A stretch of DNA of 64,000 bases from Hyphobacterium indicum. GTDB lineage: Bacteria; Pseudomonadota; Alphaproteobacteria; Caulobacterales; Maricaulaceae. Shown here one piece after another: positions 7,095-64,000 of the stretch (the stretch's first letter is position 1; the number at the start of each line of letters is the position of its first letter). Location: contig NZ_QBDX01000001.1 in NCBI RefSeq assembly GCF_003129605.1, forward strand, positions 186,001 through 250,000. Direction: 5' to 3'. Position numbers and translations under genes: made by a program. The notes under the pieces are model-generated. The model had not been told where the DNA came from and did not search any database. It worked only from the letters and a program-made list of their open reading frames with translations.

Positions 7095-7132
7095 TAAATG
7101 GAAAGCTGACGCTTTCAACGTCCTTTGATAGA

Positions 7133-7169
7133 CTCCCTTGTCCCGTGGCGGACAAGGGAGTTTTCTTTT
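7133..7169 (+). terminator. Terminator of motA whose 3' arm holds the next gene's ribosome site
   Basis: A perfect 10-bp stem (CTCCCTTGTC / GACAAGGGAG, 8-base loop) is followed by TTTTCTTTT. It is a good intrinsic terminator for motA. The 3' arm contains AAGGGAG, seven bases before the TTG at 7168, so any read-through RNA would hide the ribosome site of the following small gene. Confidence 0.85.
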
Positions 7170-7368
7170 GGGCATCGAGATAGCCGGACCCTTAGGTCTG
7201 CTGATCCTGGTTTTCGACATTTATGCGATCCTGAACGTGGCCCGTTCGCAGGCGTCGTCTCTGGTGCGGGTTGTCTGGATCGCCCTGATCCTGATCGCTC
7301 CGATCATCGGCTTCTTGCTGTGGCTCTTTCTCGGGCCGCGGGAGGAACGCAGCCTTTTCCGCCGCTGA
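7168..7368 (+). CDS. Small membrane protein with PLDc_N-like domain
   Basis: 66 residues with two hydrophobic segments (GPLGLLILVFDIYAIL and VWIALILIAPIIGFLLWLFL) and a charged end (GPREERSLFRR). The pattern, including the Asp in the first segment, matches PLDc_N, the membrane domain often found before phospholipase D proteins and also alone. No enzyme activity is implied. TTG at 7168 is preferred because AAGGGAG lies 7 bases upstream. An earlier in-frame TTG at 7138 would start inside the terminator hairpin. The function of stand-alone copies is not known to me. Confidence 0.7.
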   Translation: MGIEIAGPLGLLILVFDIYAILNVARSQASSLVRVVWIALILIAPIIGFLLWLFLGPREERSLFRR

Positions 7369-7390
7369 TACCGCGCTATAAGCGCATCCC

Positions 7391-7945
7391 ATGAAAATCC
7401 GTGACGCTGACATTCTCATCATTCCCGGGCTCGGCAATGCCTCCCCCCTGCACTGGCAAAGCCGCTGGCAGGACAAGATGTCCACCGCCCGCCGCGTCGA
7501 GCAGGACAATTGGCAGCATCCGGTCCGTTCTGACTGGTCCGCACGCCTGAACGCGGACATCCGCGCCGCGTCCAGGCCCGTCATCCTGATCGCCCATTCC
7601 GTTGGCGTTTTGACGGTGGCCCATGCGGCCCGGGATTGGGAGGCTGGCAGGGTGGCGGGCGCATTCCTGGTCGGACCATCCGATTGGGAGCGTCCGGACA
7701 TGGAACAGAGATTTCCCGGGCACGGCTTTGCGCCCGTGCCCCGTGAACCGCTCGGCTGCCCGGCCCTTGTGCTGGCCAGTTCCAATGATCCGGCCTGCGA
7801 TGTCACAACGGCAGAGCGCTGGGCGCTCGACTGGCAGGCGCGGTTTGCGGTGGCCGGAGATGCCGGTCACTTTGATGAATCCGACGGCTTCGGACCGTGG
7901 CCGGAAGGCCTCATGGCCTTTGCCCAGTTTGCGAAAGCCCTGTGA
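7391..7945 (+). CDS. RBBP9/YdeN-family serine hydrolase
   Basis: 184 residues. Signature parts of the RBBP9/YdeN alpha/beta hydrolase family are visible: IIPGLGNASPLHWQS at the N-terminus, the nucleophile elbow LIAHSVGVL with the catalytic Ser, LASSNDPACD with the likely Asp, and GDAGHFDESDGFGPWPEG with the His. The family is cytoplasmic and substrates are mostly unknown. Its stop overlaps the GTG start of mnmC (GTGA), so the two genes are probably co-translated. A functional link to tRNA modification is not known. Confidence 0.88.
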   Translation: MKIRDADILIIPGLGNASPLHWQSRWQDKMSTARRVEQDNWQHPVRSDWSARLNADIRAASRPVILIAHSVGVLTVAHAARDWEAGRVAGAFLVGPSDWERPDMEQRFPGHGFAPVPREPLGCPALVLASSNDPACDVTTAERWALDWQARFAVAGDAGHFDESDGFGPWPEGLMAFAQFAKAL

Positions 7946-16422: not shown

Positions 16423-16527
16423 GGCAGTCATCCTTCATAACCATCAGCGTCAACATAGGCATGCCCGCAGGACTGCCAATGCGTCCATCACGTCCGGTGT
16501 GTTATCGTGTTGTAAACAGGAAGAAAA

Positions 16528-16602
16528 TGGTGGGCGCGGCAAGGATTGAACTTGCGACCCCTACGATGTCAACGTAGTGCTCTCCCACTGAGCTACGCGC
16601 CC
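16528..16602 (-). tRNA. tRNA-Val (anticodon GAC), CCA end encoded
   Basis: On the minus strand the sequence folds as a 75-base tRNA. The acceptor stem is GGGCGCG with CGCGCCC, and the D-arm is GCTC-AGTGGGA-GAGC. The anticodon stem is CTACG/CGTAG with loop TTGACAT (anticodon GAC), and the T-arm is GCAAG-TTCAATC-CTTGC. The 3' ACCA is in the DNA. GAC reads valine codons GUC and GUU. Confidence 0.97.
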
Positions 16603-16871
16603 GTCCACCAAGGGAGGCGAGCTATTAGCCCTGCTGCGGCACGGATGCAAGACGAAGCTGCATTCTGTGCTGAAATGACAGGCGTCTGACGATCGTATGA
16701 CTTTTATGCAACATTCCCGGCGGAAATACGGCGAAGATGGGGCGCACGCTTTACGAGCGGGAATGCGGCGGCGATAGTGAGGTCAGGAAAGTAGCCACTT
16801 TCCGGCTGTGCGCGTTTGCCTCGGTGTCTGTTCTGTCGCGGTGAACCAAAATAAACAAGTCATGAAGGGGT
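16603..16871 (+). other. Intergenic leader before the TonB receptor gene, with a small hairpin
   Basis: 269 bases without a recognisable gene. At 16786-16803 a 7-bp perfect inverted repeat (GGAAAGT-AGCC-ACTTTCC) could form an RNA or operator hairpin. It has no T-run, so it is not an obvious terminator. The promoter of the downstream receptor should lie here, but I could not fix its boxes. Confidence 0.45.
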
Positions 16872-19800
16872 ATGACAGTGAGCAATTTCTGGGATCGCGA
16901 GCGTCTCTTGCGCTCAACCATTCTGGCGGGCTTCGCGGCAGCGGGTCTGGCCGGGGCGACTGCGTATGCGCAGGCCGTCGAAGAAGATGAGGAAGCCGTT
17001 GAGGAAGAGGAAGAAGAGGATACGGTTATTGTAACCGGTTCCCGGATTCAGCGCTCTGAATTCAACTCGCTTTCGCCGGTGCAGGTCATTTCGGGCGAAG
17101 TTTCGCGCGAAGTCGGCCTTGTAAATGCCGCAGACATTCTGCAGGCCCAGTCGCAAGCGACCGGTACACAGATCGACACCACATTCGTTGGTTTCGTTCT
17201 CGACAACGGCCCGGGTTCGGTTCAGCTAAACCTGCGTGGCCTGAATGCCGAGCGGACCCTGACGCTGATCAATGGCCGCCGTCTGGCGCCGGCCGGTATC
17301 GGTGGCGCACCGACCAGCCCGGATCTCACACTGATCCCGGGACTGATCATCGAGCGCATCGACCTGCTGCTTGATGGTGCCTCCTCGATCTACGGTTCGG
17401 ACGCTGTGGCCGGTGTGGCCAACGTCGTGCTCCGTCAGGATTTCGAAGGCGTCGAGTTTGAATACAACCGCACCACACCCTTCGACAGTGGCGGTGAGCA
17501 AACCCAGTTCGCAGCCGCCTGGGGTATCAACTCCGACCGTGGCTTCGCCGGTTTTGCCTTTGAATATTCGCAAACCGAAGTCCAGCGCCTCGGCGACCGT
17601 GATTTTACCCGCGGATGTCCGCGCAATTACGAGATCGGCAATGACGGTGTGATCCGCCAGGACGACGTGTCGACATTCGATTTCCGCACGGCAGCCCCGG
17701 GCGACATCAATGCCGGACGTAATGTCGGTCTGTTCACTGGTACGAACTCCAATTGTAACACTTCCCTGATCAACCGCCTCTTTATCCCGGTCGGTTTCGG
17801 TTCCACCTACTACACACCGGGTTTCTCCAATATCGGTGTTCCGGACTTCTCGGAATCCAATCTTGGGGGCCGTTTCGGCGGTCCGTTGGGGTCGAACGTC
17901 TGGAGCCTGGCGCGTCTGCAAGGTCAGCCCGGACCGTACACGTCCGATTTCGACTTTGCTTCGCCGCTGTACAACCAGAATACGGCATCGAACTATAACG
18001 ATCAGGACTTCATTCCCGAGCAGCAGCGCTGGAGCTTCTACAGCTATGGCGAGCACGATGTCAGCTGGGGCAGCAATACCTCGGCTTACTACGAGTTGCT
18101 GGTGGCCAATCGTCAAACGACCATCAATTCGCTGGATCCGGGCTTCTTCCCGACCGTGCCGGGGAACAACCCGTTCAACCCGTGTAACCAGACCAGCAAC
18201 CCGAATGGCGTGAACTGCCTGGGTACGGTCTTTGGCGTGAACTTCGGCAACCTCGATGTTGTGCCGATCGTCCAGATTCTGGGCGAACGGGACCGTCAGG
18301 AAGCGGACATCACACAGATCAGCTCTGTGGTTGGTTTCCGCGGCGATCTGCCCTTCTTTAATTCCTGGAGCTATGACCTCTTCACGAGCTATGCCCGCTC
18401 GGAAGGCTTCAGCCGCTTCGTCGGGGTTGATAATGACCGCCTGCAATTGTCGCTCAACACCTCCGTCCGCCTGCCCAATGGCCAGGTGGTCTGCGGTATC
18501 GACATCAATGGTGATGGCATTCCGGACAATGAAGTCGGCGCCTTTGGCGGTGAATTCCTTAGCAATACGCCATGTGTTCCGGTCAACCTGTTCCAGCCTT
18601 CCCTCTATCAGGAAGGCGGCGGTGTCCTTTCGCAAGCCGAAATGGACTATCTCCTGGCACCGGCGACCATCCGGACTGTTTACGAGCAATTGCTCGTTGG
18701 CGGTACAACGACCGGCAATCTGTTCACACTGAACAATGGTTCTGACGTCCCGCTCGTTCTCGGTTTCGAATATCGCCGTGACACCATCCAGTCCCAGGCA
18801 GACGATACTTTTGGCCGCGGTGACATCATCTTCCGTTCGGCTGACCAGGGCGCAACCGGTAACCGCTATCTGTGGGAAGTTTTCGCAGAAACGGAATTCC
18901 AGCCAATCCTGGGCCGCCGCTTCGCTGAAGAAGTGACGATCAACCTCTCGGGCCGCTGGACGGATGAGAGCAATTACGGTTCAGATGTCACCTACTCGAT
19001 CAAGGGTAACTGGCGTCCGACCAACTGGCTGAACTTCCGCGGTTCCTACGGCACCTCCTATCGTGCGCCGAATGCCCGCGAGCAGTTCCTGGCGGGTCAG
19101 ACCGGTTTTGCCACTGTCGCCGACCCGTGTGTGGTTCCGACCGCAGCCCGTGTCGATCATGACAACAATCCGGCGACACAGCTGCAATACGATCCGAATC
19201 TCGACACCCGCTCGCAGATCACGATCGCCAACTGTCAGGCCGCCGGTGTCGATCCGACATCACTGGGTCTTGCAGGCAATCTTCTGCCGAACACTTCAGT
19301 GGAAACGGCATCGGGTGGTACGACAGCGCTGGATCCGGAAACCTCACGCTCGCAAACTTGGGGCGTTGTGGCAGAACAGCCCTGGTTTGAAGCCTTCGAT
19401 CTTCGTTTTGCAGTGACCTATTACGACATCGTCGTCAGCGACTCGGTCAATGAGCCGACCGCCGGCTTTATCGTGAATGATTGCTACAATACGATCCCGG
19501 GCTTCCAGTCCGCCTTCTGTAACCGTATCCGGCGTGATGGACAGGGCTTCCTGAATTTCATCGATGCCTCCTTCATCAACATCGGTACGATCAACTCGAA
19601 GGGTGTGGACTTCAACATTCTCTATGAGGATGAGCTCCCGTGGTTTGGCGGCTGGGGTCTGACCACCGACCTCCGCGCGACGCGCCTGAACGAGCAGGTC
19701 TTCAATGTTCAGGGAACGCCGGATGACAACGCTGGGGAAACCGAAGCGCCGCATTGGACAGGTTCTGTCCGTGTCGCACTCGATCGGAATAACTGGCGCT

Positions 19801-50397: not shown

Positions 50398-52284
50398 TCA
50401 AGGCCCGGCCGGATCGACGAATTCGTCCATCCAGCTTTCGAGGCTGAGTAGCGACCAGATAAGAAGGCGCTTGTTCTCCGCACCGCTCATATGCGCATCG
50501 ACCAACTTGTGAACAGCGGAGGAATTCATGAATTCGTAAATCCGGCTGTTCGGATCATTCACGATACGATTCACATAATCGATACTTTCGCCCTTGAACC
50601 AGCTTGCGTCGGGCGCCGAGAAGCCTTGCTTGACGGCATTTGCGACCTCCTCTGGAATATAGCGGCTCATCAGTTTCCGCAGAATCAGCTTGCCATCTCG
50701 TGTTTTCTGAAAATGTTTCTGGGATTTGCCGGGCTGGTTCTCGTCTTCCCGCACAACTTCAGTCAGGTTTCCGAGTTTCATTCCGGTCGGCAACCGCATG
50801 GCAAAATCGACGAGGTCATTGTCGAGAAAGGGCACCCGGGTTTCGAGAGAATGGGCCATTGAAAGCTTGTCTTCCACGACAAGAAGTCCGTGCAGGAAGG
50901 TCCGCGCTTCGAAATACAGTGACTGGTTTATATAGTCTTCTGGGCTGTTGAGCTCGCTGGGCCGGTTGGCGAAGACGTCGCGGAAAATATCTGTTGGTGA
51001 AATGTGCTTGACGTCCTCCCAGACCGGTTCGAGCACATCACGCAGCTGGTCCCGATCCAGAAGGCGTTGCCAGAATCCGAAATACTTGTTGATATAATCG
51101 TCGAAATCCGAATTCACTACGGCGCGGTAATAGCGCCAGGGATAGCCGGCAAATATCTCGTCGCCGCCCGAGCCGGAAAGAACGACTTTAACGAATTTGC
51201 TGGCCAGTTGCGCTGCATAGAAATTCGGGTAGCTCTGGCCAACACGCGGTTCTTCCAGATGGCGGGCGATACGCGGCATGGCGCGTTCCATATCCCCTGC
51301 CTTCAAGACCATTTCATATTGCTCTGTCTTGAATCTGTATGACATCAGTTCGGCAGCGCGGCGTTCATCAAACGCCAATTCGACGCCCGAGGCTGAATGC
51401 AGATCAAAGCCGACGGTAAACGTCCGCATGTAAGGCAGAGTTTTGGCCGCAATTGCTGTGATTGAGCCGGAGTCCATACCACCAGAGAGATAGGAGCCCA
51501 CATCTACATCAGCGACAAGCTGGCGCGTGACCGCTTGACGGAAGAGATGATCGAGTTCTTCAAGGTAGTCATCTTCGCTGCGGGCTTCGGTCGGTTCCTG
51601 AAAACAGTAGTCCCAATAGCGCGTAATGACCGGCTCCCGGCCATCGGTTCGAACGTCCATGACCGAGCCAGCAGGCAGCATCTTCACATTGCCGAAAATC
51701 GTCCGCTCGGTGAAGAAATTTTGAAACGTCAGGTACTCAACGAGACCTTCCGCGCAGAGGTGCGCCTTGACGAAATCGCTGGCGAGAATGGCTTTTATCT
51801 CTGATCCGAAAACAAACTGGCGGTTTGCCCGGGCATAATAGAGCGGCTTTATGCCATAGCGGTCGCGGGCAAGCTGCAGGACGCGTTCCTTGCGGTCCCA
51901 AACGGCAATGGCAAACATCCCGTTGAAGCGAGACGCAGCGCCCGTGAGCCCCCATTCGTCAATGGCTTCGAGTACGACCTCCGTATCGCCCGTCGTTCGG
52001 AAAATATGCCCCTTCGCGGCCAGTACGTCACGTATTTCGGCATAATTGTAGAGTTCGCCATTATAAACCATGACGTAGCGGCCATTGGCCGAAACCATCG
52101 GCTGCAACGAGGCGTCACTGAGGTCAATGATGGATAGACGGCGGTGGGCAAGACCGCAGGCGCCTTCCACGATCTGGCCTTCACCATCCGGCCCACGGTG
52201 GATAATTGCATCCGACATGGCCTTGAGTGTGGCAAGGTCGGCGGATTCACCGTCATTGTTTATGTAGCCTGCTATGCCGCACAT
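50398..52284 (-). CDS. AsnB-like glutamine amidotransferase (second copy)
   Basis: 628 residues. Cys2 nucleophile in MCGIAGYINN, IHRGPDGEGQIVEG and NGELYNYAEI form the glutaminase. The ATP loop YLSGGMDSGSITAIA and GSGGDEIFAGYPWRYY form the synthetase half, so both active sites look intact. Its position between two SDR genes and giant glycosyltransferases argues for sugar amidation (WbpS-like) rather than asparagine synthesis. It is clearly divergent from the copy at 34827 (for example SGGMDSG against SGGLDSS), so the two are not a recent duplication. Confidence 0.88.
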   Translation of the reverse strand: MCGIAGYINNDGESADLATLKAMSDAIIHRGPDGEGQIVEGACGLAHRRLSIIDLSDASLQPMVSANGRYVMVYNGELYNYAEIRDVLAAKGHIFRTTGDTEVVLEAIDEWGLTGAASRFNGMFAIAVWDRKERVLQLARDRYGIKPLYYARANRQFVFGSEIKAILASDFVKAHLCAEGLVEYLTFQNFFTERTIFGNVKMLPAGSVMDVRTDGREPVITRYWDYCFQEPTEARSEDDYLEELDHLFRQAVTRQLVADVDVGSYLSGGMDSGSITAIAAKTLPYMRTFTVGFDLHSASGVELAFDERRAAELMSYRFKTEQYEMVLKAGDMERAMPRIARHLEEPRVGQSYPNFYAAQLASKFVKVVLSGSGGDEIFAGYPWRYYRAVVNSDFDDYINKYFGFWQRLLDRDQLRDVLEPVWEDVKHISPTDIFRDVFANRPSELNSPEDYINQSLYFEARTFLHGLLVVEDKLSMAHSLETRVPFLDNDLVDFAMRLPTGMKLGNLTEVVREDENQPGKSQKHFQKTRDGKLILRKLMSRYIPEEVANAVKQGFSAPDASWFKGESIDYVNRIVNDPNSRIYEFMNSSAVHKLVDAHMSGAENKRLLIWSLLSLESWMDEFVDPAGP

Positions 52285-52301: not shown

Positions 52302-53297
52302 CTAAATCTGTGCTTTGCGCTGGCGGGACTGGACTTCCTCAATATGCGAGGCCCGCCATTCAATGAGATGGCGCAAACCTTCCTCAAGCGTCACTTCGGC
52401 GGTGAAACCTATCTCCTCGGACGCCTTTTTCGGACAACCGATTCGATTGCGGACCAGCGTTGCCTGGCTACGTTCCTTGTACTGGATTTCCTGATTGGAG
52501 CCGGTGAGATTGAGCAGCATTTCAGCCAGCTCCTTCAGCGTCGTACGCTTACCCGTGCCGACATTGTAGAACTCGTCTGTTGCGTCAGCTTTCATGGCGC
52601 ACACATTGGCGCGTCCGCAGTCGCGCACAGCGACAAAATCGAAGGCTTCGCTGCCATCTCCCAGAATAGTGGGGCCTTCGCCGCGGTCGATCGCATCGAG
52701 CATTTTCATGATCACGGCGATATAGGCGCCGCGATAATCCTGACGCGGGCCATAGACATTCATATAGCGCATGCCGGTATAGTTGAGGCCGTAACGGTGG
52801 TGATAGGCCCGGGCCATCGCTTCCCCGCATATCTTGGTTGCGCCGTAAAAATTACGGTTATTGAAGGGATGGTCCTCGGTCATCGGCTCTTCGACCGCGT
52901 CGCCATAAACCGATGCCGACGACGACCAGACCAGGCGCGAAACGCCATTTCGCACGCAGGAATCAAGTACGTTGAAAGTACCTTTGACATTCACCTCGAA
53001 AGCCGAGCGAGGATAGTCATGGCATTGCAGAAGCCACAGCGCGGCAAGGTGGAAAACGCCATCGGCATTCTTCAGGGCGCTGTCGAGAATGTCGGTATGG
53101 AGGATGTCACCGCCCACCTCATAGACCTTGACGCGCGGGTCTTTGAGCGCATCGGAAAGGTTCTCGATCGTGCCGCGGACGAAATTGTCGTAGATCACGA
53201 CCTCGCCGACATCTTCCCGGATCAGTTCATCGACCACATGCGAACCTATGAGGCCGGCACCGCCGATGACCACAAGGCGTTTGCCGCGGATATCCAT
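52302..53297 (-). CDS. NAD-dependent nucleotide-sugar epimerase/dehydratase
   Basis: 331 residues. The Rossmann motif VVIGGAGLIGSHVVDELI, SSSASVYGDAVEEPM and the intact catalytic pair in NFYGATKICGE (Tyr, Lys) identify an extended SDR. RYMNVYGPRQDYRGAYIAVI is typical of UDP-glucose or UDP-HexNAc epimerases. The precise sugar is unknown: a UDP-GlcNAc(A) 4-epimerase is plausible given the WbpA-like gene. AGGAG is ten bases before the start. The 146 bases between it and the giant gene upstream show no clear terminator. Confidence 0.88.
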   Translation of the reverse strand: MDIRGKRLVVIGGAGLIGSHVVDELIREDVGEVVIYDNFVRGTIENLSDALKDPRVKVYEVGGDILHTDILDSALKNADGVFHLAALWLLQCHDYPRSAFEVNVKGTFNVLDSCVRNGVSRLVWSSSASVYGDAVEEPMTEDHPFNNRNFYGATKICGEAMARAYHHRYGLNYTGMRYMNVYGPRQDYRGAYIAVIMKMLDAIDRGEGPTILGDGSEAFDFVAVRDCGRANVCAMKADATDEFYNVGTGKRTTLKELAEMLLNLTGSNQEIQYKERSQATLVRNRIGCPKKASEEIGFTAEVTLEEGLRHLIEWRASHIEEVQSRQRKAQI

Positions 53298-53443: not shown

Positions 53444-56400
53444 TCATTGATCATCCTGACGCCAGACAGGTTCGTCTTTCATCAGCCGGTCATAAACGGT
53501 CTCGAATCGTGCCGCGCAACTCTCCTTTGAATGCCATTTGATCGCATATTCACGGCTGGCCTGTCCCGCGGCTTCGCGCTTCTGCGGATGATCCAGCAAA
53601 TCCTTCAGAGCGTCATAGACGGTGGTTTCATCGGCATGGATAAGAGGGCATTCGGCAAGAGCGTTTGAGGCCGGAACGTCATCGGGCTGTTCGGGGATGA
53701 ACCGTGAAATCACGGGCAGACCCAGGGCCATGCATTCGCGTGCGCTGGCTCCATAGCGCCCGTAATTGAGCTGGTCGACCACAATATCAGCCTGGACCTG
53801 GTAGAATCTCATATCCTTGCTTGGAACCCCGGTCTTGAACACGAGGCGAACAGGGTAACCTTCGGCCTGCAGCCGTTCGATCGCATCTATGACAGCACCG
53901 GTCCCCTTGATGTTCCTGCTGTTTTTTGCGCGCTTGTCGAAATTTCCAACAGCATGGAAAACGAGAATCTCCCCCGTCTCCCGTTCGAACTTCATGGCAT
54001 CCGGAACGGCAAGATCTGGCGACCAGATTTCCGTATCCACGCAATAGGTCAGCGGATCATAATAGGAAGCCTTCGTATGGCGCGATGTATCGGCGGGCCA
54101 GTCGATCTCGAGCGCATTGAGGTCAAGCAGCGACTCCAGCATGGTGTTCTGGGCACCGATCAGAGGGTCCGAGCAGATCTCGGGGTGCAGTTGCCAGATA
54201 CATTTGTCGCAGACGCCACCCGAAGCCTTGTATAGCCGCGACGGACGCTGCCCCGTATTGCAGCCGCTTATGGAGTGACCAATCTTGACGCCGCGCCGCT
54301 TGAGTTCAAGGAAATCCCAGGGGATCGTGTCGCGGGCCCGCGGTTGATAATTCTGTTCGAACATCGTCGCGACTTCAGCGCCGTGGAAATGCAGCATGTC
54401 AAAATGTTGGGTGACGGCCTCCATCAGATCATAGGCGCGGGCCTTGCGAACGGCGGGGTCCGGATGCCAGAGATTGAGATCTTCGCCATGATAGAAGGGA
54501 GCGTTTGCGCTGTCAGGTGATTCAAAGCTGACGAGAAGGGCATGAAAACCACGCTCCCGGAGCGCCCGAGCGAGATGGTAGAAGTGATAATAGGAATGAT
54601 TGAGAAACAATACCGATTTTTGCCCATCCCGGGCCGGAGCGAGACTTTCGACGAGCGAAGTCTCGAGCTTTGTTTCTTCGATTGACGGCAGCGGCGGAAT
54701 AATGAACCGTCGGCTGCGTTTGCCGTTGTTATATTCGACCACCTCCTTTTCATAAGGAGGTGCCGGAACAGGGGTTTGAAGCGCCATGAAGTCGGAAGCT
54801 GCTTCCGGGAGTGTGCCCAGATTTTCAGCCAGAGTCTTGCCCAGCTCGACATTTGAGCTGCGGGGCTGAATTCGCTTCAGTTCGGTGAAGCTATTAAATA
54901 TCTCCAGCGTTTTGTTTGGTGCGGGGTTTTTCCCCTCGTACAAATCAAGCAATGTGGAGGCAAAAACAGAAAAGCTATACATGGCTGCAGCGTAGCTTTT
55001 TCCGGCTTCTCCGTATTGGCGCACGAGATCCGGGGCGGCAGCAAAACGGTTGATCTTATCTGCCAAGGCTCCGTCAGTTGTGTCATCATACACTTCACCG
55101 CATTGCGCGGCATCGAGGATGGGCTCGATCGATGGAAGATTGACACTCAGGATCGCGGCCCCGGCCTGCATGTATTGAGAGAGCTTGTTCGGACTGGCGC
55201 CTTTGTGATTTTCGACATGCGACCGGTAGGTGATCAGGCCGACATCGGCGTGCCGCGCGGATGCAATCAGATCGCCTTCACCAATGCTCGGCAGGAAGAA
55301 TATGGACTTGTCGAGGCGGCCTGTTGCGCGGGCCTGCTCGATCAGGCCTTTCCGGTGAGCGTTTTCAGGTCCCCGGATGAACAGAACGGCCTTGCTGTCA
55401 TCGACCTGCTTCCACTCCTCGATCAGCTGATCAATGCCGCGATGCGGGGCGATTCCGCCCTGGAACATGAATCGCATCCGGCCCTGAGCGGCTTCTGCAA
55501 TGTCCGGGAGCTCAATATGCTTTTCAGGCCGTTCGATCGGTGCGGCATTTGGAACCGCATGAAATCCGACGATGTGACCGTAATGACGATTGAATTCGGA
55601 GGCGATGGGTGTCGAGACGGTGACTGCGCCGTCGACGTGATTGAACATGTGACGTTCATAGGAGCGAAAAAGCCAGCGTGGCCGCGGATGCATCAAATAG
55701 GCGTCGGGCCCGAATTCGTGGGCATCATAAACAAGCCTAGCGCCATATTCCGCTTTGAGCAAAGCACCGGTGACCAGCGTGTCCGGATCATTGGCGTGGA
55801 CGACGGTCGGCGCCCATCCCGAGGCGCGGATTTCATGTAGCACATGTCCGGCTTGCCGCACCGCATAGTCCAGCAGATACCAATAATAGCCATCCCACCC
55901 CTTGAACGGCAGTCTTGATTTGATGGGCCTGCGCCACAGATGTTCAAGCGCAATAGATGCCCAGCTGTTTATTCTGTCTGTTGTAAATCTGGCGATGCGT
56001 GCCTTTTGTGCCAGCCAGCAGATGGCCATCCACGGGGAGCCCAGCAGCGCCATGATCGCGCGCCGCGCCTGGCGAATCCGTTTGAGCAGAACAAACCAGC
56101 GCGGGATGATGCGGTGCTTGATCAGAAGCGCCCACAATTCCCGCTCGGATATGGTCTCGTCGCTGCTGCCATAACGCAAGACCACAGCGCCTGCCGGGTC
56201 TTCGGTTTTTGGATCGCCATACCCGTCGGTCCACCCGAATATCCATGTATCATACAGTTTGCCCACGGCGGTCTGTGCGGTCCAGACCACTCTCGGATCG
56301 ACAGTGGGCTCATGCCCGCAAAGGATGGCCAGACGCGGCGTTCCATCATCGCTATCGCGGCTGGCGGCGCCAGCATTCCCGCTGCCCAACAAGATGGTAA

Positions 56401-57118
56401 AGCGGTGAGGTGTTACATGTCCGGGTGTCACACCGACCTTGCTGAACGCACCATATTTTCTTTGAAAACGCGCTTTCAGCTCGCCAGATGAAACGCTCAA
56501 CGCCTGGACCGATTTAAGAGCCGCTCGTTCAAGGTAATGGAAAATAGCCCGCGGGCGGGGCGAAACCAGCATATTGTCCGGCCCGAAGCTCTGCGCATCA
56601 TAGACGATCCGGCATGAATATTCGGCCTTGAGTCCGAGCGCCGCCAGCAGGGAAATGCTGTCTGTCGCAATGACGATCTCGGGCGGATCATCGGTGCCCC
56701 GGAAGTGAGCCAGAACCTGACGGGCCCGGGGAATTGCATGGCTATTGATCAGCCAGCTATACCCAGCCAGTCCTTCTGCCGACGGGCAGACGCGGCCCTC
56801 GGCCTGTGCGGCTTCGACTTTGGCAAGTGCCCTTGCGAGCGAATCCAGCTTTCGCAGATCTCTGTCCGTAATTATTTCCTGGTCCCGGAGCAGGGATACG
56901 AAATCATCAGAAGGAACTTCGGGGCTTCCTGCACGGCAGTAAGTGACCGGCGTACCATCCTCAAACCCGGCATCCGGCACTTCATCCGTGTCGGTAAACC
57001 CATGCGCGGACGGCACGAAGCCGGCCGAACGCACCGTCTTTGCGATCCACGAACACCGCGGATCGGCAAGGGGGTTCATGCTCGATAGTATGACTACCCG
57101 TGTCCGGTCCCGGTCCAT
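53444..57118 (-). CDS. Giant three-module glycosyltransferase
   Basis: 1224 residues. Module 1 (about 1-250) is only the acceptor half of a GT-B enzyme, with IVYDAQSFGPDN at 171. Module 2 (about 260-725) is a complete GT-B with the parallel LVYDAHEFGPDA at 462, FQGGIAPHRGID at the start of the donor half and NHKGASPNKLSQYMQAG near the nucleotide site. Module 3 (about 835-1224) is another, less similar GT with HFHGAEVATMF, a Cys-rich CDKCIWQLHPEIC and NYGRYGASARECMALGLPV. It could therefore form two different linkages. It contains no membrane segment. AGGGG precedes ATG 57118. Confidence 0.85.
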   Translation of the reverse strand: MDRDRTRVVILSSMNPLADPRCSWIAKTVRSAGFVPSAHGFTDTDEVPDAGFEDGTPVTYCRAGSPEVPSDDFVSLLRDQEIITDRDLRKLDSLARALAKVEAAQAEGRVCPSAEGLAGYSWLINSHAIPRARQVLAHFRGTDDPPEIVIATDSISLLAALGLKAEYSCRIVYDAQSFGPDNMLVSPRPRAIFHYLERAALKSVQALSVSSGELKARFQRKYGAFSKVGVTPGHVTPHRFTILLGSGNAGAASRDSDDGTPRLAILCGHEPTVDPRVVWTAQTAVGKLYDTWIFGWTDGYGDPKTEDPAGAVVLRYGSSDETISERELWALLIKHRIIPRWFVLLKRIRQARRAIMALLGSPWMAICWLAQKARIARFTTDRINSWASIALEHLWRRPIKSRLPFKGWDGYYWYLLDYAVRQAGHVLHEIRASGWAPTVVHANDPDTLVTGALLKAEYGARLVYDAHEFGPDAYLMHPRPRWLFRSYERHMFNHVDGAVTVSTPIASEFNRHYGHIVGFHAVPNAAPIERPEKHIELPDIAEAAQGRMRFMFQGGIAPHRGIDQLIEEWKQVDDSKAVLFIRGPENAHRKGLIEQARATGRLDKSIFFLPSIGEGDLIASARHADVGLITYRSHVENHKGASPNKLSQYMQAGAAILSVNLPSIEPILDAAQCGEVYDDTTDGALADKINRFAAAPDLVRQYGEAGKSYAAAMYSFSVFASTLLDLYEGKNPAPNKTLEIFNSFTELKRIQPRSSNVELGKTLAENLGTLPEAASDFMALQTPVPAPPYEKEVVEYNNGKRSRRFIIPPLPSIEETKLETSLVESLAPARDGQKSVLFLNHSYYHFYHLARALRERGFHALLVSFESPDSANAPFYHGEDLNLWHPDPAVRKARAYDLMEAVTQHFDMLHFHGAEVATMFEQNYQPRARDTIPWDFLELKRRGVKIGHSISGCNTGQRPSRLYKASGGVCDKCIWQLHPEICSDPLIGAQNTMLESLLDLNALEIDWPADTSRHTKASYYDPLTYCVDTEIWSPDLAVPDAMKFERETGEILVFHAVGNFDKRAKNSRNIKGTGAVIDAIERLQAEGYPVRLVFKTGVPSKDMRFYQVQADIVVDQLNYGRYGASARECMALGLPVISRFIPEQPDDVPASNALAECPLIHADETTVYDALKDLLDHPQKREAAGQASREYAIKWHSKESCAARFETVYDRLMKDEPVWRQDDQ

Positions 57119-57196: not shown

Positions 57197-59473
57197 CTAT
57201 GTCTTGGTTGATTTCTCTGTTGTCTTTGCGCTGCCGCTCTGCGCCGCTCCGGAAGGCTTTTTCCCGTTTTCACCGGGCTTGCTTGCCGATTTCACGGCGC
57301 GTGTGCGGGCAGGCTTTTTGCGGGCCGGAACTGACGGCTTCGCGACTGTCTTCTCTGCAGGCGTCTCACTTTTTGCCGATGCTGGCCTGTCGGCCTTGGT
57401 CGCCGAAGGCGCGCTGGGCGCGACAGCGGATGGCTTCAGAGCAGCCGTCTTCGCAGACGACGCATTTTTGCTGGATGCAGGCTTTCCGGCTTTGGTGCCG
57501 GAAGGCTTGCGTCGCGCTGCGGATGCCGGTTTTACGGTTGTCTTCTTTGCAGAAGTTTTTGCCTTGTCGGACGCTGGCGGGTTGGCCTTGGTCCCGGAAG
57601 GTTTGCGGCGCTCCGGTGTCGGCCGTGGCTTTGATTTTCTGCCCCCGGGCCGTTTGTCTTTGACGACCGTCTCGCGAGGTCTGAAAACGCCAAACACATC
57701 GGTGACATTTCCGCCTGCAGGTATATGCCGCATGTCCACGACGTCGAACCATTTGGCGAGAAGCGGCTGGAACCAGACATCATCGATATGGAAGAGGTGA
57801 TAATTATCGACCGCAGCCCTGTCGGCCGCCGGAGTTGACGGGTAATCCGCCATGCCCGGGACATCGGCATACCAGAGAACCAGCCGTCCATCCTTTTTCA
57901 GAACGCGATGCATTTCTGACAGGGCACGCTCAAGGTCCATGACATGATCCAGGGCCGTCGCGCATATTACGGTCGCAAAGCTCTCCGCCGGCCATGGCAG
58001 GAATTCTGCGACCCCGCGTGTCACATCAAATCCGGCATCTTGTTTCACTTCGAGAGGCTCGATGCCCATGATCTGGCCGGGATCGTAACCTTGCAAATAT
58101 ACCGGGATACCGACGGGGCCGCATCCAATATCCAGCATCGGGCCTTCGGCGAATAATGACAGATAATCACGGAATCCGCGTGCCACGGCTGACGTCCATG
58201 TGGCGCAATTCTCATTCGGATTATCAGCGTAAGACGCAGCGCCCGCCCGAAACACCGGTTTCCATTTTTCAAACGTGACCGGATCAAGTGCCTTCAGGCG
58301 GTCCTCGAATCTGGTTTCGTCGTACGAGCCGGACTTGGCCGGAGCTTTTGCAGCCGGGTTCCGCTGCCACGCCATCTTCTGCAACGCGGCGGCTTCAATG
58401 GCAGCAAAACGGCCTGTGCGGTCGGCAAAAGCGGGGTCAACCGCTCCAACTGACGATGTTTCGCTGCTTGAAATCTCCGCTATCGCGCGATTGGTTTCCT
58501 GATAATAATATCTCATGGCATCAGCGACTTGGCTGCCGATGTCAGTGAGCAAATTTCGAGTATCCGTGATTGAAGATTGAAGCATTTCCATTGTCGGAGC
58601 AGCAATACTCTCATCGGTTTCGGAAATAGGCGTTCCGGCATTCAACACGCGGGCAATCTGGCCGATCTGATGGTCGATATCCTCGATCGATTTCAGGGTC
58701 CGGCGCGCCATCGGCGGGCTGGCCACGTCTTCCTGTATTGACGCCAGCTTGTTGCCAAGCGCAGCAACATTCTGGCCAACGGATTGAAGTGTCCAGTCGA
58801 GCTTGGAAATTTGAGCCCTGATTTCGTCGGACGGAAGGCTGCTAGCGGGAGACGTCATTTCGTCAAATTGTGCAGTCAAGCTACTCAGCTGTTCGCGAAG
58901 CCCTTCCTGACCAAGTGTCAGATCTCTAAGAGCAATGGAAATCTGACCTTGCCCACCATGTAGGTTATCTAGCTGTGTGCCGAATTCATCGAAGCCTTGG
59001 ACATTCAATTGTTCGACGGTACTCAATGCAGCTCGAAGCGATGTGGCGGCTGTTGTCAATTCAGATTGGCCGCTTGCAAATTGCTCACTGAAGGGGCGAA
59101 GAATATCCAGAATCTCATTCGAGCGTTCCGTGAGCTGGTTCACAGTGTTCGCGCTTGATGATTCGACCTGCTTCAATTCGACCGAATATTGTTCAATTCT
59201 TAGCTTTAAATCCTGAATTGCGGATGAAAGCGCATTGTCCTGTTTCTGGAGTTCTTCAAGTAACGGCCAGGAAACGGCCAGATTCTTTTTCAGATCCTGG
59301 GAAAGCGGCGCAACCACTTCCTTGTAGGCGATAATCTGGTCGCGCAACGGCGTGACCAGTTTCTCGACGCTAACGGATAGCCGGGCGTGCAGCGCCGAGA
59401 TATGCTGTAGCAATTGCTCTTCGGCATCCCGGTCCACTGCACTGGGCGTCTGGTTTGATGATCGCGAATTCAC
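57197..59473 (-). CDS. Coiled-coil SAM methyltransferase with basic repeat tail (possible chain-length terminator)
   Basis: 758 residues, GTG start with GGAGAG nine bases upstream. Residues about 15-335 are Gln-, Leu- and Ser-rich heptad-like helix (coiled coil), with repeated patterns such as LKKNLAVSWPLLEELQKQ. Residues about 380-600 are a class I methyltransferase: motif I LDIGCGPVG at 447-455, then VICATALDHVMDLERALSEM and LKKDGRLVLWY. Residues 600-758 are a Lys/Ala/Pro/Ser tail made of 32-residue repeats. Methyltransferases with long coiled coils such as WbdD end O-polysaccharide chains and set their length. That role here is inference. There is no kinase domain. Base composition dips in the coiled-coil part (47% GC at 58921-58980). 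Confidence 0.82.
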   Translation of the reverse strand: MNSRSSNQTPSAVDRDAEEQLLQHISALHARLSVSVEKLVTPLRDQIIAYKEVVAPLSQDLKKNLAVSWPLLEELQKQDNALSSAIQDLKLRIEQYSVELKQVESSSANTVNQLTERSNEILDILRPFSEQFASGQSELTTAATSLRAALSTVEQLNVQGFDEFGTQLDNLHGGQGQISIALRDLTLGQEGLREQLSSLTAQFDEMTSPASSLPSDEIRAQISKLDWTLQSVGQNVAALGNKLASIQEDVASPPMARRTLKSIEDIDHQIGQIARVLNAGTPISETDESIAAPTMEMLQSSITDTRNLLTDIGSQVADAMRYYYQETNRAIAEISSSETSSVGAVDPAFADRTGRFAAIEAAALQKMAWQRNPAAKAPAKSGSYDETRFEDRLKALDPVTFEKWKPVFRAGAASYADNPNENCATWTSAVARGFRDYLSLFAEGPMLDIGCGPVGIPVYLQGYDPGQIMGIEPLEVKQDAGFDVTRGVAEFLPWPAESFATVICATALDHVMDLERALSEMHRVLKKDGRLVLWYADVPGMADYPSTPAADRAAVDNYHLFHIDDVWFQPLLAKWFDVVDMRHIPAGGNVTDVFGVFRPRETVVKDKRPGGRKSKPRPTPERRKPSGTKANPPASDKAKTSAKKTTVKPASAARRKPSGTKAGKPASSKNASSAKTAALKPSAVAPSAPSATKADRPASAKSETPAEKTVAKPSVPARKKPARTRAVKSASKPGENGKKPSGAAQSGSAKTTEKSTKT
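57245..57610 (-). repeat. 96-bp in-frame tandem repeat coding for a basic tail
   Basis: Within the methyltransferase gene, three 32-residue units (residues 622-653, 654-685, 686-717) and part of a fourth begin RRKPSGTKA, RRKPSGTKA, PSAPSATKA and RKKPARTRA. Each continues with PAS near position 12 and ends KPS or KPA. The units are diverged, so the array is old rather than a recent slippage. Confidence 0.85.
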
Positions 59474-59558
59474 AGGTAAAAACTCTCCATAAAGCTCAAC
59501 GCTGGCAATCAGGGTGCCTAAGGATACCGTCTAACGAGACTGAAAGAAAGCAGGGCCT

Positions 59559-62525
59559 TCATGCATCCCCACGCTTCGAGATGCGGCGGAATAGCTCTGA
59601 AAGCAAGGTTCTGGCTGGCACCTGGGAAAGCGACAAAACCTTTCTATCCATGGCGGATTCGTCCGGGCCGGGTTGTACCTGTTCGGCCGGGACCTCCGGA
59701 TCTGCGCTGGGCATTTCGTCATCGGCCTGCGTGTCAGGCGGTGAAGCCTCCGGTTCGCCATTGTCGATTTCCCCGCCGTCCGATGGCGCATCTGGTGGTG
59801 CGGCGTCTGTGTTCTCGGCTGGCACCGCTGCAGGTGGCTCTAGAGCGGCAGGGGCAAAATTGGGCCAGCCATAGACAGGGCCGGCAGTCTGCAGTTCGAG
59901 ATCAATTGCCGCTGCTTCGCCCGGCGTTAACAGATCGGCAAGTGGTCTCCGCCCATCAGGGCAGGGACGTTGCGTCACTAGAGCATCTATGCCGTCAAGC
60001 AGCCTCGGTGACCGCTGATCCCAATTATAGCTGGTTTCAAAAAACGCCCTGGCCCGCTCACCCATGGCGCGGCGTTCATCGGCATTATCGATAAACCACT
60101 GGACTTGCGCGACAAGATCGGCCGGGTCAAGTGTATCGTAGATGCGTCCGATCTTCTCGGCGTCGAGCAGGCTCCGCACGAATGTCAGATCGGTTGAAAG
60201 TGTGGGCAGTCCGGCCGCCGAGTACTGGGATAACTTGTTGGGGCAGGCATGCTGATAATTGAGCCCATTGTGCGGGCTGTAGGGAATGATGCCGACATCA
60301 CCGGCGCGGGCACTCTCGATCAGTTCGTTCTCTGCGGCAGGCTCCGGAAAGAAAATGCGTTTATCAAGAAGGCCGTTGGCGCGCGCCAACTCGATCAGCT
60401 CGTCACGCAGCGGTGACCTGATCGCCCGGATCCACAAAATCGCGCGCTCGTCCGTTTGCGGCCAGGAATTGACAAGAAATTCGACCGGGCGTTCGCGGTG
60501 AAGGCCACCGTGGAACAGGAAGACGACCTGGTCTTCCGTCCGGGGAGGAATGTCGATGGCGGCCTTGACGTCATCCGGCAGGGGCTTTGAAGCTTCGAGT
60601 GACGCGCAGTTGGGCAGGACGATATAGTCGCGCGCGTATTCTGCAGACATGATGTCTGCCAGTGGTTTTGAAACCGTCGCGGCGAGATCGAGGCCGGCCA
60701 CCAGCGCCTGTTCGATTTTCGACCAGAAATCGAATTCCCAATTGGTCGTGGAACGGGCAGCGGGCCAGTATTCGTGGGCGTCATACACACTCACGGCGCC
60801 GATCTCTCGGGCGAGCGCATTGGCGACGGGCGCACCGTGAAGATCGACCCCGATGACCACGTCGAAATCGCCGAGTTGACGGCCAATATCCAGCAGTATG
60901 CTCGGACCGTTGATCATCTCCCAGCAAGCATGGCGGAAACTCTCGGTGTCCTTGCCCGGATCGACAGCTCCGAAGCGTTTTTCGAGCGCCGAATTGGGCG
61001 CGAATACACACTGGGCCATCAAAGACAGAACATACTCCGGCAAGGCAAGCGGCTGACCAGCCTCGGGCAGTCGCAGGCCGGGCCATGTGTGGGGGACCAG
61101 CCGGCTGCGGATCTGCACACGCGTCTCGCTGACCGTTTTCAGTTCGATCGGCGAGGTCAGATCGTGATGAACGCCGAGCTCTACCACTTCATAACCGCGG
61201 GCTTCGAGGCTTTCGCTGAGCCAGGTGACCCGAGGATCAACATCCGGATCATGGTACATGGCGACCAGTGCCCGCTTCGGAAGAGCCGGGCGGGGCAAAG
61301 TGCGCGACGGCCGCGCCCGGATCATAATGCCTTTTTCATCCAGCTTCTCGCGGACCGCTGCATCAAATGCCTCGACGAAACGGTCATAGGTATGATTGTC
61401 GGAAAGAATGATTTCTTCGAAAGCGGCAGACGTCATCTGCGTCCACGCTTTTTCGTCTCGTATGAGATCGAACGCTTCGTCAAGATTGGAGAGGTCGCGT
61501 TTCAGCGGGAAGAAATGGCGCCCCGGTATGAAAATATCTGAATATCTTCCCTCATACAGGATTTGCAGCGCCCCGACAGCTGCGGCTTCGAAATGGCGCG
61601 GAGAAATCTGGGCGTAATCGATATTGTCCTCGTATTTGTGAAGGAAAGCCTCGTGAGCTTTCAGGTAATAGGCCTCACTGCCGGGATCCATATCGGCGTT
61701 TTCCGCCGCGAATTCGTCGCACGCGGCAGTGACGGACCCGTCGAAATCAAACAGGTTGGAGCCGCTTTCCACTCCCAGCACAGCTTTGGAAGATGCCAGG
61801 AACCGGGTCCAGGCTTCGCCATTGATCCGGTCCTCCCAACGGCTGGAGATGTCGGTTGTCAGCCCGGCAGCCTCCGCTGGCCCCCGCACAGCCTTGCCAA
61901 TGGCCCGCTTTTCGAATCCGAGCCGACCGCAAATCAGGGGTTGGATAGACCCGCGATAGCTGATGTCTATGGGCCGGCGGTCGTAAGGCGGGCGTTGCGC
62001 CTTGCGCATGTTTTCAGAAACGAATGCGGTCAACTGCTGAACGACGCGTACGCCTTCCAGCGCTTCGGCTGTGTAGGCTTTCTCCAGCTCGTGCGGCGGA
62101 ACGCAGGTCACCAGAATGTCGAACCGGTTTGCCTTCAAAAAGGCCCCGAACTCATGGGTGCGGAAATGTTCATCCTGCTTCACCAGGATTTTCAAGCCAT
62201 CGTAATCGGGAAATTTCGTTTCTAGATTGGCGTCCAGGCTGACCAAATTGGTCGGGAAATAACAGACCGCCGGATGAATCATGACGCCGGCATATTCATT
62301 CAGATCGATATGCGCCGGGATACGCAGTGGCGAAAACCCGCATTTCCAGAGATTTAATACTTCGAAATCATATGCGCTCGCCTTTGCCCAAGCGGCAACG
62401 TTTTCCCGGATCGTCATGAGACCGATCGGGTCAAAATAGGCGATCAACAGGATTGTGTTCCGCCGAAATGCGGCTCTGCCATGTTGGGGTGTAAGTGGAA
62501 TGGCGTGAGTCGTGGTTCCGGTCAT
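59559..62525 (-). CDS. Giant two-module glycosyltransferase with acidic tail
   Basis: 988 residues. Residues 1-410 are a CgeB-like module related to the product of 47622-49517 (FDFDGSVTAACDEF, ISPRHFEAAAVGA, DLSNLDEAFD). Residues about 420-850 are a GT4-like module with SVYDAHEYWPAARS, FLFHGGLHRERPVEFL and NYQHACPNKLSQYSAAGLP, related to module 2 of the 1224-residue protein. The last 120 residues are rich in Pro, Glu and Asp (SDGGEIDNGEPEASPPD) and may be disordered. ATG 62525 follows GGGGGACACC. ATG 62537 has no ribosome site. It is the first gene of the long leftward operon. Confidence 0.85.
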   Translation of the reverse strand: MTGTTTHAIPLTPQHGRAAFRRNTILLIAYFDPIGLMTIRENVAAWAKASAYDFEVLNLWKCGFSPLRIPAHIDLNEYAGVMIHPAVCYFPTNLVSLDANLETKFPDYDGLKILVKQDEHFRTHEFGAFLKANRFDILVTCVPPHELEKAYTAEALEGVRVVQQLTAFVSENMRKAQRPPYDRRPIDISYRGSIQPLICGRLGFEKRAIGKAVRGPAEAAGLTTDISSRWEDRINGEAWTRFLASSKAVLGVESGSNLFDFDGSVTAACDEFAAENADMDPGSEAYYLKAHEAFLHKYEDNIDYAQISPRHFEAAAVGALQILYEGRYSDIFIPGRHFFPLKRDLSNLDEAFDLIRDEKAWTQMTSAAFEEIILSDNHTYDRFVEAFDAAVREKLDEKGIMIRARPSRTLPRPALPKRALVAMYHDPDVDPRVTWLSESLEARGYEVVELGVHHDLTSPIELKTVSETRVQIRSRLVPHTWPGLRLPEAGQPLALPEYVLSLMAQCVFAPNSALEKRFGAVDPGKDTESFRHACWEMINGPSILLDIGRQLGDFDVVIGVDLHGAPVANALAREIGAVSVYDAHEYWPAARSTTNWEFDFWSKIEQALVAGLDLAATVSKPLADIMSAEYARDYIVLPNCASLEASKPLPDDVKAAIDIPPRTEDQVVFLFHGGLHRERPVEFLVNSWPQTDERAILWIRAIRSPLRDELIELARANGLLDKRIFFPEPAAENELIESARAGDVGIIPYSPHNGLNYQHACPNKLSQYSAAGLPTLSTDLTFVRSLLDAEKIGRIYDTLDPADLVAQVQWFIDNADERRAMGERARAFFETSYNWDQRSPRLLDGIDALVTQRPCPDGRRPLADLLTPGEAAAIDLELQTAGPVYGWPNFAPAALEPPAAVPAENTDAAPPDAPSDGGEIDNGEPEASPPDTQADDEMPSADPEVPAEQVQPGPDESAMDRKVLSLSQVPARTLLSELFRRISKRGDA

Positions 62526-62724
62526 GGTGTCCCCCATTTCAAAGTCGGCATCTTCTTTACCGTTTCACAGCCCAAACACAATGAATCTTGGGGCCCGGTG
62601 CCAATGTTTGGTCAGCTTGCCCGGTTCAGTATTTTCTGGCACGAGGAAGCAGGAGCAGGTTGATGTCAACACTGCCATGTTTTTCGGGCGTATCGGCCCG
62701 GCCGACACTCAGGGTGTAAGTTAA

Positions 62725-63657
62725 GTGTCTGATAGCAAATCACCAATCTCATTTGGCGCCGATGAGCCGGAAATTCTCGTTGTTTTGCCGAAGTCGGCGA
62801 ACCAGTCGAATCTGGCAGTCGCATTTAACGATCTGTTTTCGTCTCTCGCCAACTGGAAGCTGTGGCTTCGGCTCTCAGTGATCGATATTCGCAATCGCTA
62901 TCGCCGGACTGTTCTGGGACCGTTCTGGAATGTCCTCAGCATGGCGATCCTGATCACGACGCTGGGTGTTCTGTGGTCAACGATTTTCCAGCAGGACTTG
63001 CGCACCCACGTGCCCTATTTCTCGGCCGGCTACGTGACCTGGATTCTGATTGTGTCCGTGTTCAATGACCATACGCAGGCATTCGCGGCCAATGGGGCCA
63101 TTATCCGGGCGATATCGCTGCCGTTTTCTATTCATATTGTCAGGCCGATATCGCGAAATCTCATGGTATTCGCTCATTCGCTGATCGTTCATATTGTCGT
63201 TATGATCGTCACGCAGACGGCAATACTTGAATATATTCCCGGAACCGGCGAGTTGGTGCCCGTCCAGTATAGCTATGATATCGTGACGCTTTTGCTTTTC
63301 CCTGTAGGGCTTCTGATCCTGTCGCTGAATTTCATCTGGATCGGTTTGATTTTGGCCACGGTCTGCGCGCGATATCGCGATGTCTCGCAGGTCGTGGTCG
63401 CGCTTCTTCAGGTTGCCTTTTTCGCGACACCGATATTCTGGCCGCGCACGGTGATCCAGGATAATGTCGTTGCGGACACGATTCTGGCTAAATTCAATCC
63501 ATTCTTTCATTGGGTGGAGGTTGTGCGGTCCCCCCTGCTCGGCAGGGTGCCTTCAGAGCTGACATATGCTGTGACACTGGGCGGAATGGTTTTGGGCTTC
63601 ATGGTGGCCATTTTCATTTACAGCCGATATCGCAAACGCATCTCCTACTGGGTATAA
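62725..63657 (+). CDS. Polysaccharide ABC exporter permease (second Wzm/KpsM type)
   Basis: 310 residues, GTG start. About 40 soluble residues precede the conserved [20 protein letters not shown] and then about six membrane segments. It ends [11 protein letters not shown]. It belongs with the ABC-2 permeases that export undecaprenyl-linked polysaccharide and is a paralogue of the permease at 37461-38288. It is divergent from the giant glycosyltransferase operon across about 200 bases, which should hold both promoters. The ATPase gene starts four bases after its stop. Confidence 0.9.
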
Positions 63658-63661
63658 AAAA

Positions 63662-64000
63662 ATGAGTGGAATAAAAGTCGACCGCCTGACGGTCGAATAC
63701 CCTGTGATCGATATGAGCCGCAGTTTCCGGCGAGAGATCATGCACAATTGGTTTGGATCCATAACCATGCGTGGCGAGGGTAGCAGCAAATATGCAACCG
63801 TGCGGGCGCTGCAAAACCTTTCCTTCGATCTGAAGGACGGCGACCGCTTGGGATTGATCGGGCCAAACGGGGCAGGCAAGTCGACATTGCTGCGGACTTT
63901 GGCCGGCGTTTATACGCCAACATCAGGAAGCGTTCGCGTCGAGGGAAGAATTTCAACTCTGCTGACGATCGGCGTCGGCATGGAGCTGGATGATTCCGGT
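63662..64000 (+). CDS. Polysaccharide ABC exporter ATP-binding protein (second Wzt/KpsT type), cut by window edge
   Basis: The first 113 residues are visible, running off the right edge. ATG follows a run of A residues right after the permease gene. The extended N-terminal lead ([15 protein letters not shown]) before ALQNLSF and the Walker [19 protein letters not shown] fit the Wzt/TagH group, as does the later [17 protein letters not shown]. Signature and Walker B motifs are beyond the edge, as would be any C-terminal glycan-binding domain, which would matter for understanding chain termination. Confidence 0.9.

What the first reader, a model, noticed from the sequence alone, without database searches (positions are those of the whole stretch)
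57197..59473. Coiled-coil methyltransferase as a candidate O-polysaccharide chain terminator and ruler
The protein joins about 320 residues of coiled coil to a SAM methyltransferase and a basic repeat tail, and sits between two giant glycosyltransferases near a Wzm/Wzt exporter. In the E. coli O9a system, WbdD methylates the chain end and its coiled coil sets chain length. Here the order is coiled coil first, no kinase, plus a new tail, so this would be a separate design.
Basis: partly seen in the sequence, partly recalled or inferred. Interest (0 to 1): 0.75.

Follow-up and report, generated by a model that had tools for sequence, protein, structure and literature searches.

The report
Coil-tethered glycan methyltransferase, possible length ruler
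A bacterial gene for making a surface sugar coat encodes a methyl-adding enzyme on a long helical stalk; it resembles known enzymes that cap sugar chains at a set length, but it is built back to front and the export pump beside it lacks the usual cap-sensing part, so the capping role is plausible but unproven.

Summary
The ORF is real (57197-59473, minus strand, GTG start, 758 aa): an interrupted coiled coil over roughly the first 330 residues, a class I SAM methyltransferase (MT), then a Lys/Ala/Pro-rich tail. It lies between two multi-module glycosyltransferases beside Wzm/Wzt.

Orthologues of the MT are rare in the genomes sampled. The three found (G867, G863, G310) all lie in polysaccharide clusters within 2 kb of wzt. 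They share the order N-terminal region then MT, but have 63-137 residues before the MT (350-377 here) and no basic tail. Coil-first is therefore a family trait and N-terminal length varies about three- to six-fold.

The WbdD reading is only partly supported. The MT is not specifically WbdD-like; WbdD is MT first, then coil; and O8 WbdD already lacks a kinase. Most important, the 255-aa Wzt has no Wzt_C carbohydrate-binding domain and none was found in the genome, whereas passages of PMC11231755 give it to all terminated O-antigens examined there.

Best reading: a coil-tethered glycan methyltransferase of the assembly complex that probably methylates chain ends, with export not gated by the end group. 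A ruler role is possible. New variant of a known kind.

The parts
57197..59473 (-). Coiled coil - methyltransferase - basic tail protein, 758 aa, GTG start; GGAG at about 59485-59488
58487..59428 (-). Interrupted N-terminal coiled coil, about residues 16-329 (upper bound)
   Evidence: periodicity, unspecific heptad score, breaks; helix segments in a low-confidence model
57674..58324 (-). Class I SAM methyltransferase domain, about residues 384-600 (Pfam core 447-533); family motifs LDIGCG, ATxLDHV, HLFH
57200..57667 (-). Lys/Ala/Pro/Ser-rich basic tail, residues 603-758, absent from the three orthologues
59559..62537 (-). 992-aa protein: N-terminal part like the 431-aa protein of L004, C-terminal part a GT4 like the 494-aa one of L004, then an acidic tail
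59682..59921 (-). Acidic tail of the 992-aa protein, residues 873-952, net -19
53444..57118 (-). 1224-aa glycosyltransferase with several GT4/GT1 modules
62725..63657 (+). Wzm, ABC-2 permease; best NCBIfam model is the galactan-export Wzm/RfbD (223 bits, below its cut-off of 380)
63662..64000 (+). Start of Wzt (255 aa in all, continues beyond the window): ABC ATPase, no Wzt_C domain
52302..53297 (-). NAD-dependent epimerase/dehydratase; 69% identical to one in the G310 cluster
50398..52284 (-). Asparagine-synthase-like amidotransferase; 57% identical to one in the G310 cluster

Best explanation
The gene encodes a cytoplasmic, coil-tethered SAM methyltransferase of an ABC-transporter-dependent polysaccharide assembly complex. 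SHOWN by sequence: the domains, their order, and the N-terminal-region-then-MT order in three orthologues that all lie near wzm/wzt. INFERRED: the N-terminal coil oligomerises and holds the MT at a distance from the glycosyltransferases; the MT methylates the growing glycan, most likely its non-reducing end; this ends or discourages elongation, so coil length can influence chain length. Because Wzt has no carbohydrate-binding domain, export is not gated by the methylated end as in E. coli O8/O9a; capping would act beside an O2a-like, ungated exporter.
For: MT domain here and in the orthologues. Three orthologues, all in clusters with glycosyltransferases and an ABC exporter; gap between wzt and MT 0.2, 1.2 and 1.8 kb in G863, G310 and G867, and 3.25 kb from MT to wzm here. 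Full-length alignment: same order, invariant motifs. In G863 the order wzm-wzt-MT matches wzm-wzt-wbdD of E. coli O8/O9. Strong helical periodicity in the window protein. Extended coils are called a characteristic marker of the terminator strategy (PMC11231755, passages). Neighbouring GTs are multi-module proteins.
Against: No Wzt_C in this genome, G867 or G863, although the passages say that all terminated O-antigen examples have it. G310 has Wzt_C, but its N-terminus is short and not periodic (347 of 500 shuffles). G867 and G863 N-termini are weakly periodic (10 and 46 of 500); the WbdD O9a and O8 coils score no better (18 and 105 of 500), so this test neither supports nor excludes coils there. 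Polarity is reversed relative to known terminators. The WbdD SRSWR segment after the coil (read) was not found by a motif search of 23 cluster and orthologue proteins. No direct evidence of end methylation.
Confidence: 0.4

Rival explanations
1. The MT decorates internal residues, side chains or the sugar precursor, and the coil is only a scaffold that keeps it in the glycosyltransferase complex. It does not terminate chains or measure length.
For: The Wzt is of the short, ungated kind and Wzm is closest to the galactan-export model here and in G867 and G863 (223, 142 and 138 bits, cut-off 380), as in Klebsiella O2a, where length follows from stoichiometry and not from a cap (PMC11231755, passages). 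The N-terminal region varies from 63 to about 370 residues. The MT domain is generic by sequence.
Against: A long coil on a glycan-modifying enzyme next to an ABC exporter is described as the marker of the terminator strategy. Ordinary decorating methyltransferases do not need a 300-residue stalk (recalled, not tested).
Confidence: 0.4
2. A full WbdD-type terminator: the methylated end is the export signal read by Wzt.
For: MT plus coil beside wzm/wzt, in the position of wbdD in G863. The G310 orthologue coexists with a Wzt that has Wzt_C.
Against: No Wzt_C in the window's Wzt (255 aa) or genome. MT not specifically WbdD-like. Reversed polarity.
Confidence: 0.08
3. The MT is not a glycan enzyme and is in the cluster by chance.
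For: The best NCBIfam matches are non-carbohydrate or general methyltransferase models, far below their cut-offs (best 41.7 bits against 155).
Against: All four members found here lie near glycosyltransferases and wzm/wzt.
Confidence: 0.05

Closest known systems
WbdD of E. coli O8 (MT-coil, no kinase)
   Same: SAM methyltransferase plus coiled coil in one protein, encoded beside wzm/wzt and a large glycosyltransferase; no kinase (PMC3482155 passages)
   Different: MT first and coil second; SRSWR segment after the coil; Wzt 404 aa by its coordinates (its domains were not scanned). The window protein is coil first, has a basic tail and a 255-aa Wzt
WbdD of E. coli O9a
   Same: MT plus coil in an ABC-dependent O-antigen locus
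   Different: Has a kinase; MT first; Wzt of 431 aa with Wzt_C, E 2.9e-25; BLASTP E 0.24
Klebsiella O7 ORF6 and O12 WbbB (PMC11231755, passages)
   Same: A modifying enzyme separated by a coil from polymerase GT modules
   Different: Terminator N-terminal and polymerase modules C-terminal in one chain; here the polymerase-like GTs are separate proteins
Klebsiella O1/O2a system (PMC11231755, passages)
   Same: Wzt without carbohydrate-binding domain; the window's Wzm is closest to the galactan-export Wzm model
   Different: Chain length there follows from stoichiometry; the O1 pyruvyl cap only diversifies the structure
   Same: GT-MT-GT order, epimerase (69%) and amidotransferase (57%) homologues, 38% identical MT
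   Different: Only 63 residues before the MT match, no tail, Wzt with Wzt_C

Membership tests
WbdD-type chain terminators | MT domain specifically related to WbdD by sequence | tested here: not met
   BLASTP E 0.24 against O9a; no WbdD-named chain in 39 PDB matches at E up to 10 (presence of WbdD in that copy not separately checked); hhalign prob 87.6, E 3.5e-6, only the common MT core, 87 columns, 21% identity (no hhalign control against other MT families was run)
WbdD-type chain terminators | Order: catalytic domain N-terminal, coil, membrane/polymerase-binding C-terminus | tested here: not met
   Order is coil, MT, tail
WbdD-type chain terminators | Extended coiled coil in the same chain | tested here: met
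   with breaks; not confirmed by a good structure model
WbdD-type chain terminators | Cognate Wzt with C-terminal carbohydrate-binding domain | tested here: not met
   Wzt 255 aa without Wzt_C; no PF14524 match in the genome; positive controls: E. coli O9 Wzt, G310, and 2 of 30 genomes over the cut-off
WbdD-type chain terminators | Methylates (or phosphomethylates) the non-reducing end and stops elongation | not testable with these tools
   needs biochemistry
WbdD-type chain terminators | Coil length sets modal chain length | not testable with these tools
   needs coil-length mutants
Class I SAM methyltransferases (Methyltransf_11) | Family profile above curated cut-off and SAM motif I | tested here: met
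   50.2 bits against 21.2; LDIGCG invariant in the four members
ABC-transporter-dependent polysaccharide locus | Wzm and Wzt with glycosyltransferases in one cluster | tested here: met
O2a-like ungated exporter | Wzt without carbohydrate-binding domain | tested here: met
   coupling of export and extension itself not tested

The most novel reading that the evidence does not exclude
A reverse-polarity capping machine working without end-group gating at the exporter: a coil-first methyltransferase family whose ruler length has diverged three- to six-fold among relatives, and in which this genome has added a basic tail (+21 per 80 residues) that docks on an acidic tail (-19) of the neighbouring fused glycosyltransferase, replacing the polymerase-recruitment region of WbdD.
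Probability: 0.12. Interest if true: 0.75.

Novelty: new variant of a known kind. Interest (0 to 1): 0.45.

Why it matters
Coil-borne terminators are an experimentally established way in which cytoplasmic glycan assembly measures length (PMC11231755 and PMC5082667, passages). A family with opposite polarity, next to an exporter without the end-reading domain, would separate two functions that go together in the systems described there: capping with length control, and export gating. The natural series of N-terminal lengths (63, about 120-140 and about 370 residues before the MT) makes the ruler idea testable by comparing polysaccharide lengths between relatives.

Tried and rejected
Tried without result. 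Structure prediction of the whole protein and of the MT alone gave models too poor for fold search. A plasmid search gave two distant MT-core hits in archaeal plasmids. Phage families gave nothing informative. Papers: PMC11231755, PMC3482155 and PMC5082667 were seen as found passages; others only as search listings. The Whitfield review and the 2015 ruler paper are not held. The listings of paper searches showed no title or abstract on a coil-first methyltransferase terminator; this covers only that open-access library, and only the rows listed.

Rejected. 'No kinase makes it new' (O8 WbdD has none). 'Repeat tail' as a true repeat. Membership in the WbdD family. The Bordetella wbm comparison (WbmS-like and formyltransferase genes downstream; search 64) was not pursued.

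Limits of the counts. Genome samples overlap and each includes the own genome; at most 7 candidates per genome were scored, so orthologues may have been missed. Charge ranking used 113 mechanically called ORFs of five loci, some perhaps spurious, not the whole genome. The heptad score is a home-made measure that also marks parts of catalytic domains.

I mended the N-terminal lengths, the genome counts and the description of the heptad score.

Full report
OBSERVATION. The ORF at 57197-59473 on the minus strand is real. It starts with GTG, preceded by GGAG at 11 nt. Residues 447-533 match Methyltransf_11 at E 4.2e-13. Residues 15-205 have a strong hydrophobic period of 3.55 (0 of 1000 shuffles as high) and residues 205-340 one of 3.65 (p 0.006). 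The MT domain shows no such signal (81 of 500 shuffles). A home-made heptad score covers residues 16-329 but also marks 498-541 of the MT domain, so it is not specific; prolines and a Gly cluster break the region. The tail is basic (37 K+R against 7 D+E in residues 613-758) and not a proper repeat. Structure models were uninformative beyond low-confidence helix placement (mean pLDDT 40.4 and 37.9).

NEIGHBOURHOOD. The gene lies between a 992-aa and a 1224-aa glycosyltransferase on the same strand. Pairwise comparison shows the 992-aa protein to be a 431-like plus a 494-like module; those two are adjacent separate genes further along (L004:8554-9849 and 7060-8544). The 1224-aa protein contains a 494-like module (41% over its residues 260-730). 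Wzm and Wzt are encoded divergently, about 190 bases from the start of the 992-aa gene. Downstream of Wzt are WbqC-like, formyltransferase and WbmS-like genes, which suggests a polysaccharide of modified sugars.

ORTHOLOGUES. A full-length search of 30 genomes (own included) gave besides the own gene only MT-core hits. In a class sample of 385 only G310 stood out beside the own genome (38% identity, E 3e-40; the next hit was 6e-10). In a phylum sample of 398 none besides the own genome passed 1e-15 (next 3e-14). In the order of G310, 1 of 10 passed, G310 itself. In the family 3 of 137 (own, G863, G867) passed 1e-15. In an order sample 3 of 398, the same three, passed 1e-20. All samples include the own genome except that, they overlap, and candidates per genome were capped. 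The four members lie in clusters with glycosyltransferases and an ABC exporter: wzm-wzt-GT-MT-GT in G310; wzm-wzt-MT in G863, and in G867 with an integrase-core gene (rve_3) between wzt and MT. The permeases of G867 and G863 had no Pfam match at 1e-3 but match the galactan-export Wzm model at 142 and 138 bits (below its cut-off) and the window's Wzm at 27-29% identity. The G310 amidotransferase and epimerase are 57% and 69% identical to the window's. All four MTs have an N-terminal region before the MT. By BLAST boundaries that region is 63 residues in G310 against 370 here, 137 in G863 against 377, and 118 in G867 against 350. Of these four only the window protein has the basic tail. The two sister proteins are 68% identical over nearly their whole length, N-terminus included. 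Periodicity in their N-termini is weak (G867 10, G863 46, G310 347 of 500 shuffles), but the WbdD coils score no better than the first two (O9a 18, O8 105 of 500), so the test cannot decide for these.

RELATION TO WbdD. I took WbdD O9a and O8 from E. coli genomes. BLASTP of the window protein against O9a WbdD gives E 0.24. The profile of window plus G310 matches 39 PDB sequences at E up to 10 and none is named WbdD. Profile comparison of the four-member MT alignment with the two WbdDs gives probability 87.6 and E 3.5e-6 over 87 columns of the common MT core; this is expected of two class I methyltransferases, though I ran no control against other MT families. Both WbdDs are MT first and coil second, with SRSWR after the coil; a search for that motif in 23 cluster and orthologue proteins found none. 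The absence of a kinase is shared with O8 WbdD (PMC3482155, passages).

EXPORT GATING. Passages of PMC11231755 say that in all the terminated O-antigen examples the Wzt has a C-terminal carbohydrate-binding module that reads the cap, whereas the O1/O2 transporter lacks it and length follows from the stoichiometry of transporter and biosynthesis complex. The window's Wzt is 255 aa with the ATPase domain and no Wzt_C. PF14524 is not found in this genome nor in G863 or G867. The test works: it finds the domain in E. coli O9 Wzt and in G310. The G310 case shows that the same MT family can coexist with a Wzt that has the domain.

MECHANISM. I commit to a coil-tethered glycan methyltransferase in the assembly complex, probably acting at chain ends, with ungated export. 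Whether the coil is a ruler or a scaffold is open, and I give the two about equal weight. For scale, 191 residues of straight coil would span about 28 nm and 314 residues about 47 nm, against about 20 nm quoted for WbdD (PMC5082667, passages); the breaks make these upper limits.

TAILS. Among 113 mechanically called ORFs of five loci the tail of this protein has the most basic 80-residue stretch (+21, tied with the integrase-core gene of G867) and the 992-aa neighbour has the most acidic one (-19). In six other genomes searched with the 992-aa protein at E up to 1e-20 (G867, G863, G310, G005, G007, G017), 2 gave matches, each to one module at a time. In both of these, G867 and G863, the 431-like and 494-like genes abut in one frame with TAG-ATG at the junction. 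Charge pairing as a docking device is therefore possible but rests on a single genome.

VERDICT. Sequence observation confirmed; interpretation partly supported; not a WbdD family member; a new variant of the coil-tethered glycan-modifying enzyme kind, with a natural N-terminal length series that makes the ruler question testable.

Noticed in passing
59682-59921 (-) and 57200-57667 (-): Oppositely charged low-complexity tails on two adjacent gene products: -19 and +21 net charge per 80 residues.
   Followed up: partly
59559-62537; L004:7060-9849; L082:14148-16976; L083:13041-15836: The 992-aa protein looks like a fusion of two modules that also exist as adjacent separate genes in the same cluster; in G867 and G863 the equivalent genes abut in one frame with a single TAG between them.
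   Followed up: partly
L082:2713-4371 and L083:1426-3108: In the sister genomes a different cluster protein (552/560 aa, related to the 431-aa family) carries a basic C-terminal tail.
   Followed up: no
L082:10733-11845: An integrase-core/HTH gene (rve_3), probably a transposase, sits between wzt and the MT gene in G867.
   Followed up: partly
L004:957-4824: WbqC-like, formyltransferase and WbmS-like deacetylase genes downstream of Wzt suggest N-formylated amino sugars in the polysaccharide.
   Followed up: no
L004:5344-6429 and 16423-17580: Two proteins with a Transglut_core match (E 4.7e-07; 7.4e-07) in a polysaccharide cluster.
   Followed up: no
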